A program made the translations under genes and the position numbers. DNA of 64,000 nucleotides from positions 62,001-126,000 of the forward strand of contig NZ_BMCR01000007.1 in the NCBI RefSeq assembly GCF_014635285.1, in the 5' to 3' direction. Of this stretch, positions 36,447-47,815 are shown one piece after another. The notes under the pieces were generated by a model. The model was given only the letters and a program-made list of their open reading frames with translations. It did no database searches and was not told the origin of the DNA. Position 1 is the stretch's first letter. Every line of letters begins with the position of its first letter. The DNA comes from Stappia taiwanensis. Its GTDB lineage: Bacteria; Pseudomonadota; Alphaproteobacteria; Rhizobiales; Stappiaceae.

Positions 36447-39203
36447 TCAGGCGGCCCCTACATGAAGCCGACCGGCATGGTCGGGCTGGTCCAGATAGGC
36501 AAGAAAATCGGCCTCCGGCATTGGCCGGCCGAGGTGATAGCCCTGGATCTGGCGGCAGCCGAGCGCCAGCAGGGTCTGGCACTGGCCTTGCGTTTCGGCG
36601 CCTTCGGCGATGACATTGATGCCGAGGCTGGCGGCCATGGCAATAATCGCTTTCACCAGCGCCCGGTTTTCCGGGTCGGTTTCCAGATCCCGAACGAAGG
36701 ACTGGTCAATCTTCAGGGTGTCGATCGGGAAGCGCTTGAGGTTGCTCAGCGAGGAATACCCGGTGCCGAAGTCATCGAGCGACAGGCGCACGCCGAGATC
36801 GCGAATGGCGTTCAGCGTCTCGATCGGGCTGGCCCCGGTCTCGTCGAACATGACGCTCTCGGTGATTTCCAGATGTAGGCAGCGGGCGGGCATTCGGGTG
36901 CGTTTCAGGGTACCGCGCACCATGTCGACGAAGGTTTCATCCCTGCATTGGCGCGGAGAGACATTGACGCTGATTACCGGCAGCGACAGTCCCTTTTGCG
37001 CGCAGGCGCGCTGAAAGCGGCAGGCTTCCTCCAGAACCCAGGCGCCCAGCGGGACGATCAGGCCAGTGTCTTCGGCGATCGGGATGAAGTCCGCCGGCGG
37101 GATCGGCCCCTTTTCCGGATGGTTCCAGCGGACCAGCGCCTCGCAGCCGATCACGTGACCTTTGGCGACATCGACGAAGGGCTGGTAATGCAGGCGCAGC
37201 TCCTGGGTCTCCAGCGCCCGGCGCAGGGAGCTTTCGATCTCCATGGAACGGGCCAGATGGTCGTTCATGCTGGAGGAGAAAAAGCGCAGCTTGTTCCCGC
37301 CCTCCGCCTTGGCGTGATACATCGCCGTGTCGGCTTGGCGCAGCAGCACCTCGTCATCGTCGCCATCGTCCGGCGACACGGTGATGCCGATGCTGGCGGT
37401 GGAAAATACCTCGGTGTTGCCATTGACCATCACCGGGCGGGCGAGCTGTTCGAGAATGTGCGCCGATTGCGTTTCGATTTCCCAGACATTGCGAGCATTG
37501 GCGAGGATGATGGCGAATTCGTCGCCGCCCAGCCGCGCGACCGTATCGTGATCGTCGAGCACGCAACTGATCCGTTCGGCCGCAGCCTTGATCAGCATGT
37601 CGCCAGCGCTGTGACCAAGGCTGTCATTGATGTTCTTGAAACGGTCGAGGTCAACGAACAGCAGGGCGAAAACGCCACCGTTCCACTGGGTCCGGGCAAT
37701 CGACTGCAGCAGCCTGTCGCGAAACAGGGTGCGGTTCGGCAAGCCGGTGAGCATGTCGAAATTCGCTTGCCGGATGATCAGCTCTTCCTGCCGCTTGCGT
37801 TCGGAAATGTCGGTGATGGTGACGTAATGGGCGTCGCGGTCATCCCAGCGGGCGGGGCGCACATGCAACTCGATCCAGAGCCGCTCGCCGGTCTTGCTCA
37901 GGCCCTTGGCCTCGAACACGCCGGGCGCCGAGGCGCCCTGTTTTCGGGCGCGCAGATAGGATTTCATCCGGTCGTGCTCTTCCGGCGCAACGAGCGCCAG
38001 AACGCCGCGCGAGACAAGGTCTGCCCGGTCGGACGGGGTATAGCCGAGGATGTTCAGCAGTGACCTGTTGAGGTAAAGGACTTCCAGGTCGGCGTGAATG
38101 CAAACCCCCTGGAAGGAGCCGTCGATCAACTCACGGAACTGCCGGTCCGTATCCCGCAGATCGGTGAAGGCGTGCTCCAGATTGCGGCCGAGATCGTTGA
38201 ACTCCTTCACCGCGCCGGGGTGATAGGTGAGATCAGAGCTGTCCCGGCGAATGCGCGAGGCATAGGCAAGCAGACGCTGCAGCGCGGGGCTGGTAAAGCG
38301 ATGCAGCACATAGGCGGCGACCAGCGCGGCGGCGAGGATGTAAAGCAAGAATGGGCCGAACAGCTCCACATAGGTGGAGCGAATGTTCTCGATCGCCTCG
38401 CTCGGGCGCTCGGTGACCACGTAGAGAGGGTGGCCGTGCCGGTCGACCTTCAGTTCGCTGCGGACCAGAAGCTGGTCTCCGGTCAGCATATGAGCATCTT
38501 CGGTCAGGGTCGCACGGGTGTCCGGATCGAGGGGAGACGAGCCCAGATGGCCGACGCTGGCGATGGCGGTGGTGTCGTGAAACAGGGCAAGGCTGTCGGT
38601 CTCAAGGGCGCGGGACAGCTCGCCCAGCAACGCGATGGTGTCATTGAGGACAAAACCGCCGACCAGGTGACCCAGCACCTTGCCGCTGCGCTCATCCACC
38701 ACCGGGATGGCTTCGGCGGCGACCAGGGTGCCATCGGGGCGTGTTTCGTCGGCCAGGATCATCCAGCTGCCGAGCGGCAGTGATTTGCGCCGGTCCGCCG
38801 GCAACACGCGGTGAAGGTCGAAGATCGAGAAGCTGGCATCTGCCCAGTCCGGTGCCTCCGGCCGGTCGAGCAGCAGCATCTCGAATTGCGCCCCCAGGGG
38901 AGTGTCTGTCGCGGTGCCGAGAATGCGGGTTGCGGCCGCCTTGTCGCCGATCCGCAGCGCCTGTTTCAGTTTGGTATCCTTCGACAGGGCCCGGAGGTAG
39001 GTGTCGAGGCGGGAGAGATTTTGCTCGAATACCAGCCGGGCGAGGGTCTGTTCGCGCTTGGCGAAGCGCTCCAGCTCGTGATCGACAATGGCGAGGCTGC
39101 CGACATAGCTGATGGAAAACAGCGCGGCCGAGGTCGCCAGCAGAGCTACCAGAAACAGGCCGAGCACAAACCGGTTGAAGCTGAAGTCGCGCCTGTCTTT
39201 CAT
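36447..39203 (-). CDS. Membrane c-di-GMP enzyme: LuxQ-like periplasmic domain, PAS, GGDEF and EAL
   Basis: A 918-residue protein. TM1 (about 12-34) and TM2 (about 281-301) enclose a periplasmic domain that resembles that of Vibrio LuxQ: VVDERSGKVLGHLVGGFVLND near residues 168-188 aligns with the LuxQ segment VPILDPSTGEVLGF. After TM2 come a linker with EFNDLGRNLEHAFTDL, a PAS domain (355-470), GGDEF (480-640; intact GGDEF at 559-563) and EAL (655-905). The EAL residues E688, N747, E779, D809-D810 and K831 are all present. The RxxD inhibitory site is absent (DDHD at 550-553). Both activities could be live. Its start overlaps the stop of the luxP gene by four bases, so it is the likely receptor partner of LuxP. 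The LuxQ kinase and receiver domains are absent. Confidence 0.92.
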   Translation of the reverse strand: MKDRRDFSFNRFVLGLFLVALLATSAALFSISYVGSLAIVDHELERFAKREQTLARLVFEQNLSRLDTYLRALSKDTKLKQALRIGDKAAATRILGTATDTPLGAQFEMLLLDRPEAPDWADASFSIFDLHRVLPADRRKSLPLGSWMILADETRPDGTLVAAEAIPVVDERSGKVLGHLVGGFVLNDTIALLGELSRALETDSLALFHDTTAIASVGHLGSSPLDPDTRATLTEDAHMLTGDQLLVRSELKVDRHGHPLYVVTERPSEAIENIRSTYVELFGPFLLYILAAALVAAYVLHRFTSPALQRLLAYASRIRRDSSDLTYHPGAVKEFNDLGRNLEHAFTDLRDTDRQFRELIDGSFQGVCIHADLEVLYLNRSLLNILGYTPSDRADLVSRGVLALVAPEEHDRMKSYLRARKQGASAPGVFEAKGLSKTGERLWIELHVRPARWDDRDAHYVTITDISERKRQEELIIRQANFDMLTGLPNRTLFRDRLLQSIARTQWNGGVFALLFVDLDRFKNINDSLGHSAGDMLIKAAAERISCVLDDHDTVARLGGDEFAIILANARNVWEIETQSAHILEQLARPVMVNGNTEVFSTASIGITVSPDDGDDDEVLLRQADTAMYHAKAEGGNKLRFFSSSMNDHLARSMEIESSLRRALETQELRLHYQPFVDVAKGHVIGCEALVRWNHPEKGPIPPADFIPIAEDTGLIVPLGAWVLEEACRFQRACAQKGLSLPVISVNVSPRQCRDETFVDMVRGTLKRTRMPARCLHLEITESVMFDETGASPIETLNAIRDLGVRLSLDDFGTGYSSLSNLKRFPIDTLKIDQSFVRDLETDPENRALVKAIIAMAASLGINVIAEGAETQGQCQTLLALGCRQIQGYHLGRPMPEADFLAYLDQPDHAGRLHVGAA

Positions 39204-40324
39204 TGCGAATACCGGAAGGCTTTGCGTTTCAAGGTCTCGATGCGCTGTGGGTCGTCCCGGGACGTGATCAGCGCGAAGTCTCCCGAATAGACCTGGGGCA
39301 CCTCATGCCCGCGCCCCTGAAGGTCGAGCGAAATCGCCTCGGCCATGGCCACCCCGTTGTCGTCGTTCATGCGCATGACGGTGGCTTCCAGCGCGCCCTT
39401 GGCGATCTGTTCCAGCTCGGCGCTGCCACCGCCCCAGCCATTTGTGTGAACCTGACCTTCGCGTCCCAGCTCGCGGATGGCATCGAGCACACCGAGCGCG
39501 ATGTCGGTGGAGCAGGAGAAGATGTAGGAGAGCTCCGGATCCTCCAGCAGCAGGGTTCGGGCGGTGGCGTGGGCGCTTTCCCGATCGAAGCCGACGAAAT
39601 AGGAGGTGGAGAGGGTCTTGGAAGGGTGCCCGGCCATCGCCAGACGGAAGGTTTCGCCACGGGCGTGGCTGACATAGCCGCGCGAGCCATAAAAGATGGC
39701 ATAGCGCTCCGCCTCTGGGTGGTGGGCGAGATAGTGCTGCACCAGGGTTCTGGTGCCGGTGGCATGGTCGAAGCCAACATAAAGAAACGGCTGGTTCCGG
39801 GACCAGGCGCGCAGCGGCGTGGTGATGTTCTGCAGGATGACCTTGGGTCGGCCTCGGGCGATCAGCCGTTCGATGATGCTGCGATGGCGGAACGCGTCGA
39901 GCGTGAACACAAGGTAGTCGGGGTCTGATTTCAACGCCTCGCCAATATACTGCATCTGCAGGCGGACTTCGGTCGCCGGCGCGGTGAAGTGGGAGTCCAG
40001 CTCGTAGCGAAGGCCGATTTCATCGAGACGGGCGGTGAATGATTCGATGCTGCGGCGCCAATAGTCCGACGCCTGTTTCCCCGGATACACCGCCGCGATA
40101 CGCACCGGCGGCAGGCTCTGCGTCACGCGCTGGCCAGGCCCCTGAACCCGGTCGTGGAAACGGGAAGCAATCTCAGGTTGTTCAGGTCTGGTGGCGAGAA
40201 AATCCTCAAGGTCCCAGTATTCGGCCCGTGGGCCGGTGCCTGCCTGGGTTGGGAGCGGGAGGGAAAGCACAAGGAATGCAATCGCAAGTAATGCATGCTG
40301 GAGATGGGGCCGGCATTGTTTCAT
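39200..40324 (-). CDS. luxP: LuxP-type autoinducer-2 binding periplasmic protein
   Basis: A 374-residue protein with a signal peptide (MKQCRPHLQHALLAIAFLVL, cleavage near TQA at 26-28) and a periplasmic sugar-binding fold. It matches Vibrio harveyi LuxP along its length. Every AI-2 contact I remember from that structure is conserved at a constant offset: Q84, S86, W89, T141, N166, R222, T273, W297 and R318 (Vibrio Q77, S79, W82, T134, N159, R215, T266, W289, R310). Segments VILQNITTP, TNGWGGGSAEL and TVMRMNDD are near identical. It should bind borated AI-2 in the periplasm and dock on the downstream sensor. A LuxP this typical is not expected in Hyphomicrobiales. Confidence 0.93.
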   Translation of the reverse strand: MKQCRPHLQHALLAIAFLVLSLPLPTQAGTGPRAEYWDLEDFLATRPEQPEIASRFHDRVQGPGQRVTQSLPPVRIAAVYPGKQASDYWRRSIESFTARLDEIGLRYELDSHFTAPATEVRLQMQYIGEALKSDPDYLVFTLDAFRHRSIIERLIARGRPKVILQNITTPLRAWSRNQPFLYVGFDHATGTRTLVQHYLAHHPEAERYAIFYGSRGYVSHARGETFRLAMAGHPSKTLSTSYFVGFDRESAHATARTLLLEDPELSYIFSCSTDIALGVLDAIRELGREGQVHTNGWGGGSAELEQIAKGALEATVMRMNDDNGVAMAEAISLDLQGRGHEVPQVYSGDFALITSRDDPQRIETLKRKAFRYSQ

Positions 40325-40623
40325 GTTGCTTTCCAGGTTTTACGCCTTCACCGCAAGTCTGAATCAGGGAAGATTCTCATTCAAGTATCAACACCGCATT
40401 GAAGAAGCGTGAAGATTGGCGGTGGCGGCGATAAATTCAGGGAAGAGAAAGAAGGACTGGTCGAGTACTTGGCAATTGTTGCAATGAAACGCGTTTCTCC
40501 GAAAGAGTCGCTTTTGGCGCGGCCCCTTTCTGACGTCGCGGCCGCGGGGAGTGATTGCCCTTGTGTTGCGCGGGGCGGGCAAGCTGCTATACCGCCTTGC
40601 ATGGTCTGGGGTTGGAGAAACAC
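40325..40623. other. Divergent spacer between luxP and dapB
   Basis: 299 bases that are more AT-rich than the coding regions. For luxP a weak minus-strand promoter may be TTCACG (plus 40408-40413) and GATACT (plus 40384-40389) with an 18-base spacer; GGAAAG lies 5 bases before its ATG. For dapB, TTGCGC at 40566-40571 and TATACC at 40588-40593 (16-base spacer) is a weak candidate. No gene is visible. Confidence 0.4.
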
Positions 40624-46059: not shown

Positions 46060-46426
46060 GGTCCGGTCCCACGCGGGCTTCGGTCCGGAAAAGCGAAGGC
46101 AAGGCCGGGTTCGTCCCGGCCTTGTTGCGTTTCGGGAACGGAACCCTGGGTGGGTGGTCTCTCTCGATCCTTTTCAGTAACTTGATCGGTAGCTTTCCCC
46201 CTGCCCGGCGGTTCAGCAACAAGGAAAATGCGATCGGCGCGAAACGCTCCCGTCCATCGGGAGGCGGTGGGGGCTGGTCGGCACCCGGTGGCGGTATCCG
46301 ATTGAAGGAGTATGGCGTGTTGGCGTGGCGCGGTGGAGATGCTCGGAAGATGACTGGCAATCGCCGCTGGACAGTTGAAGGGGAGGCTGCGGATATTGAG
46401 TGCCGGCCCCGTTCGGGCGGTGGCCG
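46060..46426 (+). other. Intergenic region between the cytochrome c and CHASE-GGDEF genes
   Basis: A 367-base spacer. A terminator lies at 46100-46131. The rest shows no gene and no cyclic-di-GMP (GEMM) riboswitch that I can recognise, although the next gene is a diguanylate cyclase. An in-frame GTG at 46400 could extend the downstream protein by nine residues. Confidence 0.6.
46100..46131 (+). terminator. Terminator after the cytochrome c gene
   Basis: CAAGGCCGGG at 46100-46109 and CCCGGCCTTG at 46115-46124 form a perfect 10-bp stem with loop TTCGT, then TTGCGTTT. Confidence 0.75.
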
Positions 46427-47815
46427 ATGACGACGGAAGGCGTGCCTGGGCACGTGTTGAACCGCTGGAGACGTCGCGCCCTGGTAGGTGCCGTGGTGGT
46501 GCTGGTCATGCTGCTGGGACTCGGTTTGACCTCCTATGTCGTGCGCCTTTTGGAGCAGAATGCGCGGGAGAGCCAGCAGGGGGAAAGCCTCGCCCGTCTT
46601 TCCGAGGTTCGGGCGCGGATCGAGGGGGAGCTGAATGGCACGCTCTACATCGCGCAAGGATTGCTCGGTTTCGTGGCGGTGCAGTCCGACCTGACCGACG
46701 ACCAGTTCCGCAGCTTTGTCAGTGAAATCACACGGGTCGATCAGAACATTCGCATCATCGCGCTCGCCCCGGGCAACGTGGTCCGCTTCATCCATCCGCT
46801 GAAGGGCAATGAAGCGGTGGTTGGCCTCGACTACAGCAAGAGCGAGCAGCAATGGTCCGGCGTTCGCCGGGCGATGCAGTATCTCAGTCCGGTGGTCGCC
46901 GGCCCGGTCGATCTGGTGCAGGGCGGTCGGGCCTTGATTGCCCGTATTCCGGTGCTGGTGCCCACCGGCGGGGGCGGGCATGGGCTGGAGCGTGGCTATT
47001 GGGGCATGGCCTCGATCGTCATCGACAGTGACCGGCTGTTCACGCGTGCCGGCTTGCAGCCCGAGGTGGATGGACATCTTTTTGCGCTTCGTGGCGTCGA
47101 TGGCGCCGGCGCCCAGGGAGGGACAATTCTCGGTGATTCGGCCCTGTTCGAAGGAGACGCGGTGACCCTGCCGGTGACGCTGCCGGACGGGTCATGGCAG
47201 CTTGCCAGCCGACCGGTCGGCGGTTGGGATGGAACCTCGCACGAGGCGCGGGTCGCCCTGGCGATCGGTATTGTGGTGAGCATGGTGGTGGCGGCCCTGT
47301 CGGCGCTGGTGGTGTCCGCCCAGCAGCGATCCCGGTCGATGGCGCTGCACGATCCGCTGACCGGGTTGCCGAACCGCCGGTTGCTTGTCGGCCGGATGGA
47401 GCAGCTTGCGGACATGTCCGATCGCACCGGGTTGGGCTTTCAGGTCTTTTTCGTCGACCTCAATGGCTTCAAGCCGATCAACGACACCTATGGCCATGCG
47501 GCCGGAGATGCGGTGCTGCAGGAGGTGGGGGCCCGGCTGCAGCGGGAAACCCGGGACGTGGACACCATTGCCCGGATCGGAGGGGACGAGTTCGTGGTGG
47601 TGGTGCCCGGAGGCATCAGCCAGACCACGGTTCGTGCCATTGTCGAACGGCTGCGTGAGGCGGTGTGCGCGCCGGTGCAGGTGGGCGAGCATCGGATCGT
47701 TATCCGGGCAAGCATCGGCTACGCCTTCTATCCGGACGACGCGGCCACCATCCCCGAACTGCTCGAGCTTGCCGATCAGCGCATGTATCGCGCCAAGGTC
47801 GAGGTGCCGGCCTGA
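46427..47815 (+). CDS. CHASE-domain diguanylate cyclase
   Basis: A 462-residue membrane protein. TM1 (about 18-38) is followed by a periplasmic CHASE domain (about 65-210; QGLLGFVAVQSDLTDDQFRSF and NVVRFIHPLKGNEAVVGLDY) and TM2 (about 276-298), then a GGDEF domain (305-460). The active-site GGDEF lies at 385-389, and an inhibitory-site RDVD at 376-379 suggests product feedback. No EAL domain. It should make c-di-GMP in response to a small periplasmic ligand of unknown identity. The start is uncertain: ATG 46427 or GTG 46400. Confidence 0.9.
   Translation: MTTEGVPGHVLNRWRRRALVGAVVVLVMLLGLGLTSYVVRLLEQNARESQQGESLARLSEVRARIEGELNGTLYIAQGLLGFVAVQSDLTDDQFRSFVSEITRVDQNIRIIALAPGNVVRFIHPLKGNEAVVGLDYSKSEQQWSGVRRAMQYLSPVVAGPVDLVQGGRALIARIPVLVPTGGGGHGLERGYWGMASIVIDSDRLFTRAGLQPEVDGHLFALRGVDGAGAQGGTILGDSALFEGDAVTLPVTLPDGSWQLASRPVGGWDGTSHEARVALAIGIVVSMVVAALSALVVSAQQRSRSMALHDPLTGLPNRRLLVGRMEQLADMSDRTGLGFQVFFVDLNGFKPINDTYGHAAGDAVLQEVGARLQRETRDVDTIARIGGDEFVVVVPGGISQTTVRAIVERLREAVCAPVQVGEHRIVIRASIGYAFYPDDAATIPELLELADQRMYRAKVEVPA

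What the first reader, a model, noticed from the sequence alone, without database searches (positions are those of the whole stretch)
36447..40324. LuxP AI-2 receptor coupled to a LuxQ-sensor-GGDEF-EAL protein: a candidate AI-2 to c-di-GMP pathway
Seen: two overlapping minus-strand genes. The first is a LuxP with all nine AI-2 contact residues conserved at a steady offset from Vibrio harveyi LuxP. The second has a LuxQ-like periplasmic domain between two helices, then PAS, an intact GGDEF and an intact EAL; the LuxQ kinase and receiver are missing. Known: in vibrios LuxP-LuxQ signals by phosphorelay to LuxU and LuxO, and LuxP is described mainly in Vibrionaceae. Inferred: AI-2 binding switches c-di-GMP synthesis or breakdown directly, with no phosphorelay. 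Most alphaproteobacteria lack luxS, so the cell may sense AI-2 made by others.
Basis: partly seen in the sequence, partly recalled or inferred. Interest (0 to 1): 0.93.

Follow-up and report, generated by a model that had tools for sequence, protein, structure and literature searches.

The report
AI-2 receptor wired to c-di-GMP enzyme
[quoted passage not shown] this has not been tested at the bench.

The parts
39200..40324 (-). luxP: periplasmic AI-2-binding protein, 374 aa, with a signal peptide (about residues 1-28, read by eye)
   Evidence: PDB LuxP E 1e-99; Peripla_BP_4; nine contacts kept; dN/dS 0.16 against L027
36447..39203 (-). LuxQ-periplasm/PAS/GGDEF/EAL transmembrane receptor, 918 aa; overlaps luxP by 4 bp (ATGA)
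38442..39095 (-). LuxQ-type periplasmic double-PAS (Cache) domain, residues 37-254, between TM1 (about 11-33) and TM2 (about 284-301; both by eye)
37800..38105 (-). PAS domain, residues 367-468
   Evidence: PAS_9 47.2 bits
37290..37766 (-). GGDEF domain, residues 480-638; motif GGDEF at 559-563 intact; inhibitory-site arginine absent (D550)
   Evidence: dN/dS 0.025 against L027
36522..37229 (-). EAL domain, residues 659-894; EALVR at 688-692 and DDFGTG at 810-815 intact
   Evidence: closest solved GGDEF-EAL proteins
40325..40620 (.). intergenic region between luxP (-) and dapB (+; named by eye), presumed site of the luxP promoter; read but not analysed

Best explanation
It is a two-gene AI-2 receptor that speaks c-di-GMP. 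Borated AI-2 from other bacteria enters the periplasm and closes LuxP (inferred from the conserved pocket). LuxP sits on the LuxQ-type double-PAS periplasmic domain of the receptor (inferred from homology, LuxQ fold and the coupled genes). Ligand-dependent rearrangement of the LuxP-receptor dimer passes through TM2 and the conserved linker to PAS-GGDEF-EAL (inferred). The receptor is a bifunctional enzyme with both active sites intact (sequence shown, activity inferred) and shifts between synthesis and breakdown of c-di-GMP with no phosphorelay. Direction: I favour AI-2 lowering net synthesis, so phosphodiesterase dominates (about 60:40). Reasons: in Vibrio the AI-2-bound receptor turns from kinase to phosphatase and AI-2 signalling lowers c-di-GMP in V. 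cholerae (stated in PMC11796354, passages), and the top three NCBIfam matches of the receptor are phosphodiesterases, all below their cut-offs. Biological role: a cell without luxS senses AI-2 of neighbours and adjusts biofilm or motility (inferred).
For: LuxP identity and pocket. LuxQ domain by Pfam, NCBIfam, PDB profile and fold: profile of nine Stappiaceae receptors finds LuxQ 3c30 at 9e-15, 1zhh 3e-7, 2hj9 5e-5; next, unrelated, 0.05; profile-profile against HK-type LuxQ N-termini: probability 100 over residues 2-347. luxP and receptor overlap by the same 4 bp in 20 of 20 Stappiaceae genomes with LuxP, taking the first start codon. Catalytic residues intact in 20 of 20 LuxP-linked Stappiaceae receptors. 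dN/dS at or below 0.23 for LuxP and every receptor domain in three species pairs. LuxP was not found without the receptor domain in 87 Stappiaceae genomes: 20 of 20. No luxS, sahH present. LuxP+GGDEF-EAL also outside the family. Precedent for a periplasmic binding protein switching a GGDEF-EAL receptor: NspS-MbaA (PMC8967002, passages).
Against: No direct test of ligand, docking or enzyme. 18 of 38 Stappiaceae genomes with the receptor domain have no LuxP at E below 1e-140, so the enzyme can be kept without LuxP. In one genome of the genus (G001, L029) LuxP has changed 5 of 9 contacts, so AI-2 may not be the ligand everywhere. A co-divergence test was inconclusive: LuxP tracks the periplasmic domain (partial r 0.51) but also EAL (0.44) and PAS (0.35); without L029, PAS tracks best (0.59 against 0.39). 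The structure model used an alignment that included Vibrio LuxQ sequences, which may favour that fold. Direct LuxQ matches of the single window sequence are modest (3c30 1.8e-7; 1zhh 0.05).
Confidence: 0.68

Rival explanations
1. LuxP here binds another small ligand (a sugar or polyol), and the pair is a nutrient sensor that controls c-di-GMP.
For: LuxP belongs to a sugar-binding superfamily. One genus member lost 5 of 9 contacts. LuxQ-type receptors sit beside TctC-family binding proteins in two other genomes.
Against: All nine AI-2 contacts are kept in this window and in 61 of 65 LuxPs compared (two of the 65 are the same genome; one of the four misses is an ambiguous base). Eight LuxP-like proteins beside ABC transporter genes all differ at Q84 (D or E) and D274 (A). 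Caveat: three of these eight lie with an AI-2 kinase gene, so those two changes need not mean loss of AI-2.
Confidence: 0.17
2. LuxP is incidental: the LuxQ-type double-Cache domain senses its own ligand, and LuxP is a dispensable partner.
For: Of 16 LuxP-less Roseibium-type receptors compared, 13 form an orphan clade and 3 fall with the LuxP-linked ones; all tested catalytic residues are kept except one G559S. dCache domains can bind AI-2 directly (PMC7584622, passages).
Against: In all 20 Stappiaceae genomes with LuxP it overlaps the receptor gene by 4 bp, and LuxP is under purifying selection in three species pairs.
Confidence: 0.1
3. AI-2 raises c-di-GMP (NspS-MbaA-like direction): loaded LuxP favours the GGDEF state and settling in mixed biofilms. 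(This concerns direction only and overlaps with the best explanation.)
Against: Top NCBIfam matches are phosphodiesterases; AI-2 signalling lowers c-di-GMP in V. cholerae (statement in PMC11796354).
Confidence: 0.3
4. The GGDEF-EAL half is a c-di-GMP-binding scaffold, not an enzyme.
For: Some GGDEF-EAL proteins are receptors (LapD; recalled). A tandem paralogue in G831 (L231) has a degenerate GGDEF (GYQEF) and EAL.
Against: All tested catalytic residues are intact in 20 of 20 LuxP-linked Stappiaceae receptors.
Confidence: 0.06

Closest known systems
Vibrio LuxP-LuxQ (LuxPQ)
   Same: LuxP with the same nine contacts; receptor with the same TM1-periplasmic double-PAS-TM2-linker-PAS plan; adjacent genes
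   Different: Output is GGDEF-EAL instead of histidine kinase plus receiver; no luxS in this genome
NspS-MbaA (Vibrio cholerae; also Sinorhizobium meliloti)
   Same: Periplasmic binding protein that switches a membrane GGDEF-EAL enzyme without phosphorelay (PMC8967002 passages; PMC9993111 abstract start in a search listing)
   Different: Ligand is polyamine there. Relationship of the sensor domains was not tested here
[not shown]
   Same: AI-2 acts directly on c-di-GMP synthesis (PMC7584622, PMC12268683 passages)
   Different: They bind AI-2 themselves; no LuxP; no LuxQ-type domain
MorA / MucR type GGDEF-EAL enzymes
   Same: Closest solved GGDEF-EAL halves: 4rnh E 2.5e-118, 5m3c E 4e-112 (these entries are titled Motility regulator and Diguanylate cyclase; the name MorA, and MucR for 5m3c, are recalled; 5m1t is titled MucR)
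   Different: Different sensor parts

Membership tests
LuxP | Sequence closest to solved LuxP and not to sugar-binding proteins | tested here: met
   E 1e-99 against 4.7e-8 for the next
LuxP | AI-2 contact residues | tested here: met
   nine of nine (list recalled from the LuxP structure paper)
LuxP | Binds S-THMF-borate | not testable with these tools
   needs protein
LuxQ (AI-2 sensor kinase) | LuxQ periplasmic domain fold | tested here: met
   [not shown]
LuxQ (AI-2 sensor kinase) | Histidine kinase and receiver domains | tested here: not met
   Pfam finds LuxQ-periplasm, PAS, GGDEF and EAL only; NCBIfam LuxQ_Vibrio 102 bits against cut-off 1200
LuxPQ phosphorelay quorum system | Own AI-2 synthase luxS | tested here: not met
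   0 of 1 own genome; 0 of 61 genomes; control rang in 5 of 14
LuxPQ phosphorelay quorum system | LuxU/LuxO partners | not tested
   not searched
Bifunctional GGDEF-EAL enzyme | Intact GGDEF and ExLxR with metal-binding residues | tested here: met
Bifunctional GGDEF-EAL enzyme | Both activities measured | not testable with these tools
   bench
Binding-protein-controlled GGDEF-EAL pair (NspS-MbaA kind) | Binding protein gene coupled to a membrane GGDEF-EAL gene | tested here: met
   4-bp overlap here and in 20 of 20 Stappiaceae
Binding-protein-controlled GGDEF-EAL pair (NspS-MbaA kind) | Physical complex | not testable with these tools
   no complex prediction available

The most novel reading that the evidence does not exclude
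LuxP-LuxQp is a portable AI-2 receiver that evolution has connected at least twice, by parsimony three times, to c-di-GMP enzymes, and elsewhere to histidine kinases, a SpoIIE phosphatase or no recognised output at all; in luxS-less Stappiaceae it is a dedicated eavesdropping device that turns the AI-2 of other species directly into a lifestyle decision.
Probability: 0.55. Interest if true: 0.77.

Novelty: new variant of a known kind. Interest (0 to 1): 0.64.

Why it matters
If true, the best-studied AI-2 receptor is not tied to the Vibrio phosphorelay: its input half is a module that can be plugged into c-di-GMP directly. It would give a testable case of eavesdropping, since the receiver has no LuxS. 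It would offer a one-protein switch from an interspecies signal to c-di-GMP, and natural swaps to learn how LuxQ signals cross the membrane. Two papers of 2020 and 2025 state that LuxP is found only in Vibrio (PMC7584622, PMC11796354, passages).

Tried and rejected
Tried: (1) 'LuxP was simply lost and the receptor kept' as the whole story in Roseibium. The tree with G831's tandem copy shows two groups: R1, LuxP-linked, with LuxP missing in L200, L201 and L202 (the placing of L202 has support 0.65 only); and R2, an orphan clade (support 1.0). (2) N187 as a LuxP-docking mark: N in 20 of 20 LuxP-linked Stappiaceae receptors, T in 13 of 16 without LuxP, N in 54 of 68 other LuxP-linked receptors, with a few duplicate genomes among them. 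But the 13 are one clade and the 3 R1 receptors without LuxP keep N, so this may be a single event; not used. (3) Relaxed constraint on the periplasmic domain without LuxP: not seen. (4) Co-divergence of LuxP with the periplasmic domain: inconclusive. (5) LuxP-like proteins of 190-250 bits in Stappia and Roseibium as a second LuxP receptor: rejected. Those fetched lie beside ABC transporter genes (by eye; 8 of the 14 weaker matches shown were fetched); in three Stappia genomes the set includes an AI-2 kinase, so these look like uptake systems. (6) One origin of all LuxP+GGDEF-EAL pairs: AU test p 0.023 (15 rows against 33). By pairs: Stappiaceae with Marinobacterium rejected (p 0.004); Zobellella group with Marinobacterium (p 0.064) and Stappiaceae with Zobellella group (p 0.156) not rejected; the groups were named after a first tree was seen. 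So two origins are supported and three is the parsimony count (4 changes including SpoIIE). (7) Literature for this combination: searches listed no paper whose title or abstract start described it; I read passages of some, not all. One survey counted 1 cyclase/phosphodiesterase among 115 LuxQ-periplasm proteins of 2012 (table in PMC4822843, passage), so an example had been counted. Supplements could not be searched.

Dropped rows: of 18 LuxP-less receptor genomes, 17 were fetched (not G823) and 16 compared (L212, G825, left out because its frame is broken). One search used 57 of the 65 LuxP rows. The plain Foldseek search was never run; the VIA-align second look was. In one search the LuxP figure for L025-L026 may include about 50 upstream codons that are not coding.
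Full report
What is there. Two minus-strand genes overlap by four bases (ATGA): luxP at 39200-40324 and a 918-aa receptor at 36447-39203. LuxP is closest to solved Vibrio LuxP (E 1e-99; next chain 4.7e-8) and keeps all nine AI-2 contacts (the list is recalled). The receptor reads TM1, LuxQ-periplasm (PF09308, 56 bits), TM2, PAS, GGDEF, EAL (helices by eye).

The output half looks alive. GGDEF and every EAL catalytic residue tested are present in 20 of 20 LuxP-linked Stappiaceae receptors, and in 16 of 16 LuxP-less ones apart from one G559S. The inhibitory-site arginine is missing (D550). dN/dS is 0.025-0.049 for GGDEF, 0.04-0.10 for EAL, 0.05-0.17 for PAS, 0.12-0.23 for the periplasmic domain and 0.12-0.21 for LuxP in three species pairs. 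The nearest solved GGDEF-EAL proteins are at E 1e-112 to 1e-118.

Who has it. Named hits place the window in or next to Stappia: L052, Stappia indica SN13-18, LuxP 90% identical. LuxQ-periplasm is in 14 of 14 genomes of the genus, each with luxP overlapping it by 4 bp. In the 30 family loci checked for synteny (25 different genomes) the receptor lies between pnp and dapB. In a class sample 9 of 385 genomes, own included, had the domain; in 7 of the 8 others I read 8 receptor genes, all histidine kinases by eye and 6 with LuxP beside them, while the sub-cut-off hit in G412 was not identified. In a phylum sample 16 of 398, own included, had it.

Other outputs. Of 80 named LuxP loci (the best 80 of 281), 15 are followed by GGDEF-EAL (12 Stappiaceae; L079 Marinobacterium, L081 Zobellella, L086 Oceanisphaera), 1 by a SpoIIE phosphatase (L069), 56 by a histidine kinase, 1 by a receptor without output (L128); 4 have no receptor next to them and 3 are cut by a contig end (kinases judged by motifs or by eye). 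Pfam confirms LuxQ-periplasm plus GGDEF-EAL in L079, L081, L086 and SpoIIE in L069. On the LuxP tree the GGDEF-EAL cases fall on three branches: Stappiaceae (support 0.96), Zobellella/Oceanisphaera/Oceanimonas (1.0), and Marinobacterium among sulphate-reducer-type LuxPs (0.90); several deeper nodes are weak. A single clade is rejected (AU p 0.023); by pairs, only Stappiaceae with Marinobacterium is rejected (p 0.004), the other two are not (p 0.064, 0.156). I therefore claim at least two origins and regard three as the parsimony count. Named genomes of L052-L065 overlap with the unnamed G set, so the two lists are not independent.

Signal source. This genome has sahH and no luxS; 0 of 61 genomes, own included, have luxS. 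Of 13 genomes reached through loci, 7 have luxS, among them the Marinobacterium, Zobellella, Oceanisphaera and Oceanimonas records; three Stappiaceae, Kiloniella, a Rhodospirillaceae MAG and the Desulfococcaceae record do not. So the luxS-less carriers would listen only, and the gamma carriers could also talk. Non-LuxS routes to AI-2 have been proposed (PMC7584622, passage) and are not excluded. Three of the 14 Stappia-genus genomes (not this one) also carry an AI-2 kinase over its curated cut-off beside ABC genes; of the 14 control genomes none passed that cut-off. This suggests that the genus meets AI-2.

Complications. Eighteen Stappiaceae genomes keep the receptor domain without LuxP. Tree and synteny show two receptor groups in Roseibium, and G831 has both side by side, its orphan-type copy degenerate. 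One genome of the genus, G001 (89% complete, 7% contaminated), has a LuxP with 5 of 9 contacts changed. Both facts warn that the module can change ligand or lose its binding protein. The co-divergence test did not single out the periplasmic domain.

Mechanism. NspS-MbaA shows that a binding protein can move a GGDEF-EAL receptor between synthesis and breakdown (PMC8967002, passages). LuxPQ shows that AI-2-loaded LuxP resets the receptor (PMC7584622 and PMC11796354, passages). Put together, AI-2 on LuxP should reset c-di-GMP turnover directly. Shown here: genes, folds, residues, conservation, absence of luxS. Inferred: ligand, complex, direction, biology.

Novelty. AI-2 acting directly on c-di-GMP enzymes is known through dCache and GAPES1 receptors. 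A 2022 census of c-di-GMP stimuli has no occurrence of LuxP, LuxQ or NspS (PMC8846402, term search of the main text and passages). The LuxP-LuxQp-GGDEF-EAL combination was not found, apart from a count of one in a 2016 table. I file it as a new variant of a known kind.

Noticed in passing
L251-L263, L267 (family of Zobellella, 19 of 75 genomes with LuxQ-periplasm): LuxP beside a LuxQ-type protein without a recognised output: 5 genomes have only 307-334 aa (periplasmic domain and membrane helices) and 9 have 496-649 aa without GGDEF, EAL or kinase motifs (Pfam run on L260, L256 and L128 showed none); 4 have full GGDEF-EAL and 1 a kinase. It looks like output erosion with LuxP kept.
   Followed up: partly
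L215:5276-12559, L216:917-8215, L214 (G002, G003, G004): Three of 14 Stappia-genus genomes carry an AI-2 kinase (793-801 bits, cut-off 528) with an LsrR-like regulator (317 bits in L216, below cut-off 486), ABC ATPase and permease (by eye) and a LuxP-like, not LsrB-named, binding protein: an Lsr-like AI-2 uptake set with an odd binding protein.
   Followed up: partly
L224:1542-5274 and L225:1888-5604: A TctC-family periplasmic binding protein gene lies directly upstream of a LuxQ-periplasm-PAS-GGDEF-EAL receptor: the same receptor plan with a different binding protein.
   Followed up: partly
L069:6001-9473: Desulfococcaceae LuxP followed by LuxQ-periplasm-PAS-SpoIIE phosphatase.
   Followed up: partly
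L226:1780-5489: LuxP-like protein (186 bits; contacts not kept in the same gene read as L146) overlapping an 868-aa protein in which Pfam finds only LuxQ-periplasm.
   Followed up: no
L029:6282-7445 (G001): LuxP of one genome of the genus with 5 of 9 AI-2 contacts changed on a long branch, next to an ordinary receptor.
   Followed up: partly
L231:1264-4029 (G831): Tandem paralogue of the receptor with degenerate GGDEF (GYQEF) and EAL motifs, beside an intact luxP-receptor pair.
   Followed up: partly
L099, L106, L126, L130: LuxP without a LuxQ-type gene next to it.
   Followed up: no
window 46400-47815 (+): A second GGDEF protein with an N-terminal membrane-bound sensor region (by eye), near the pair in the window and also found near it in several relatives.
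   Followed up: no
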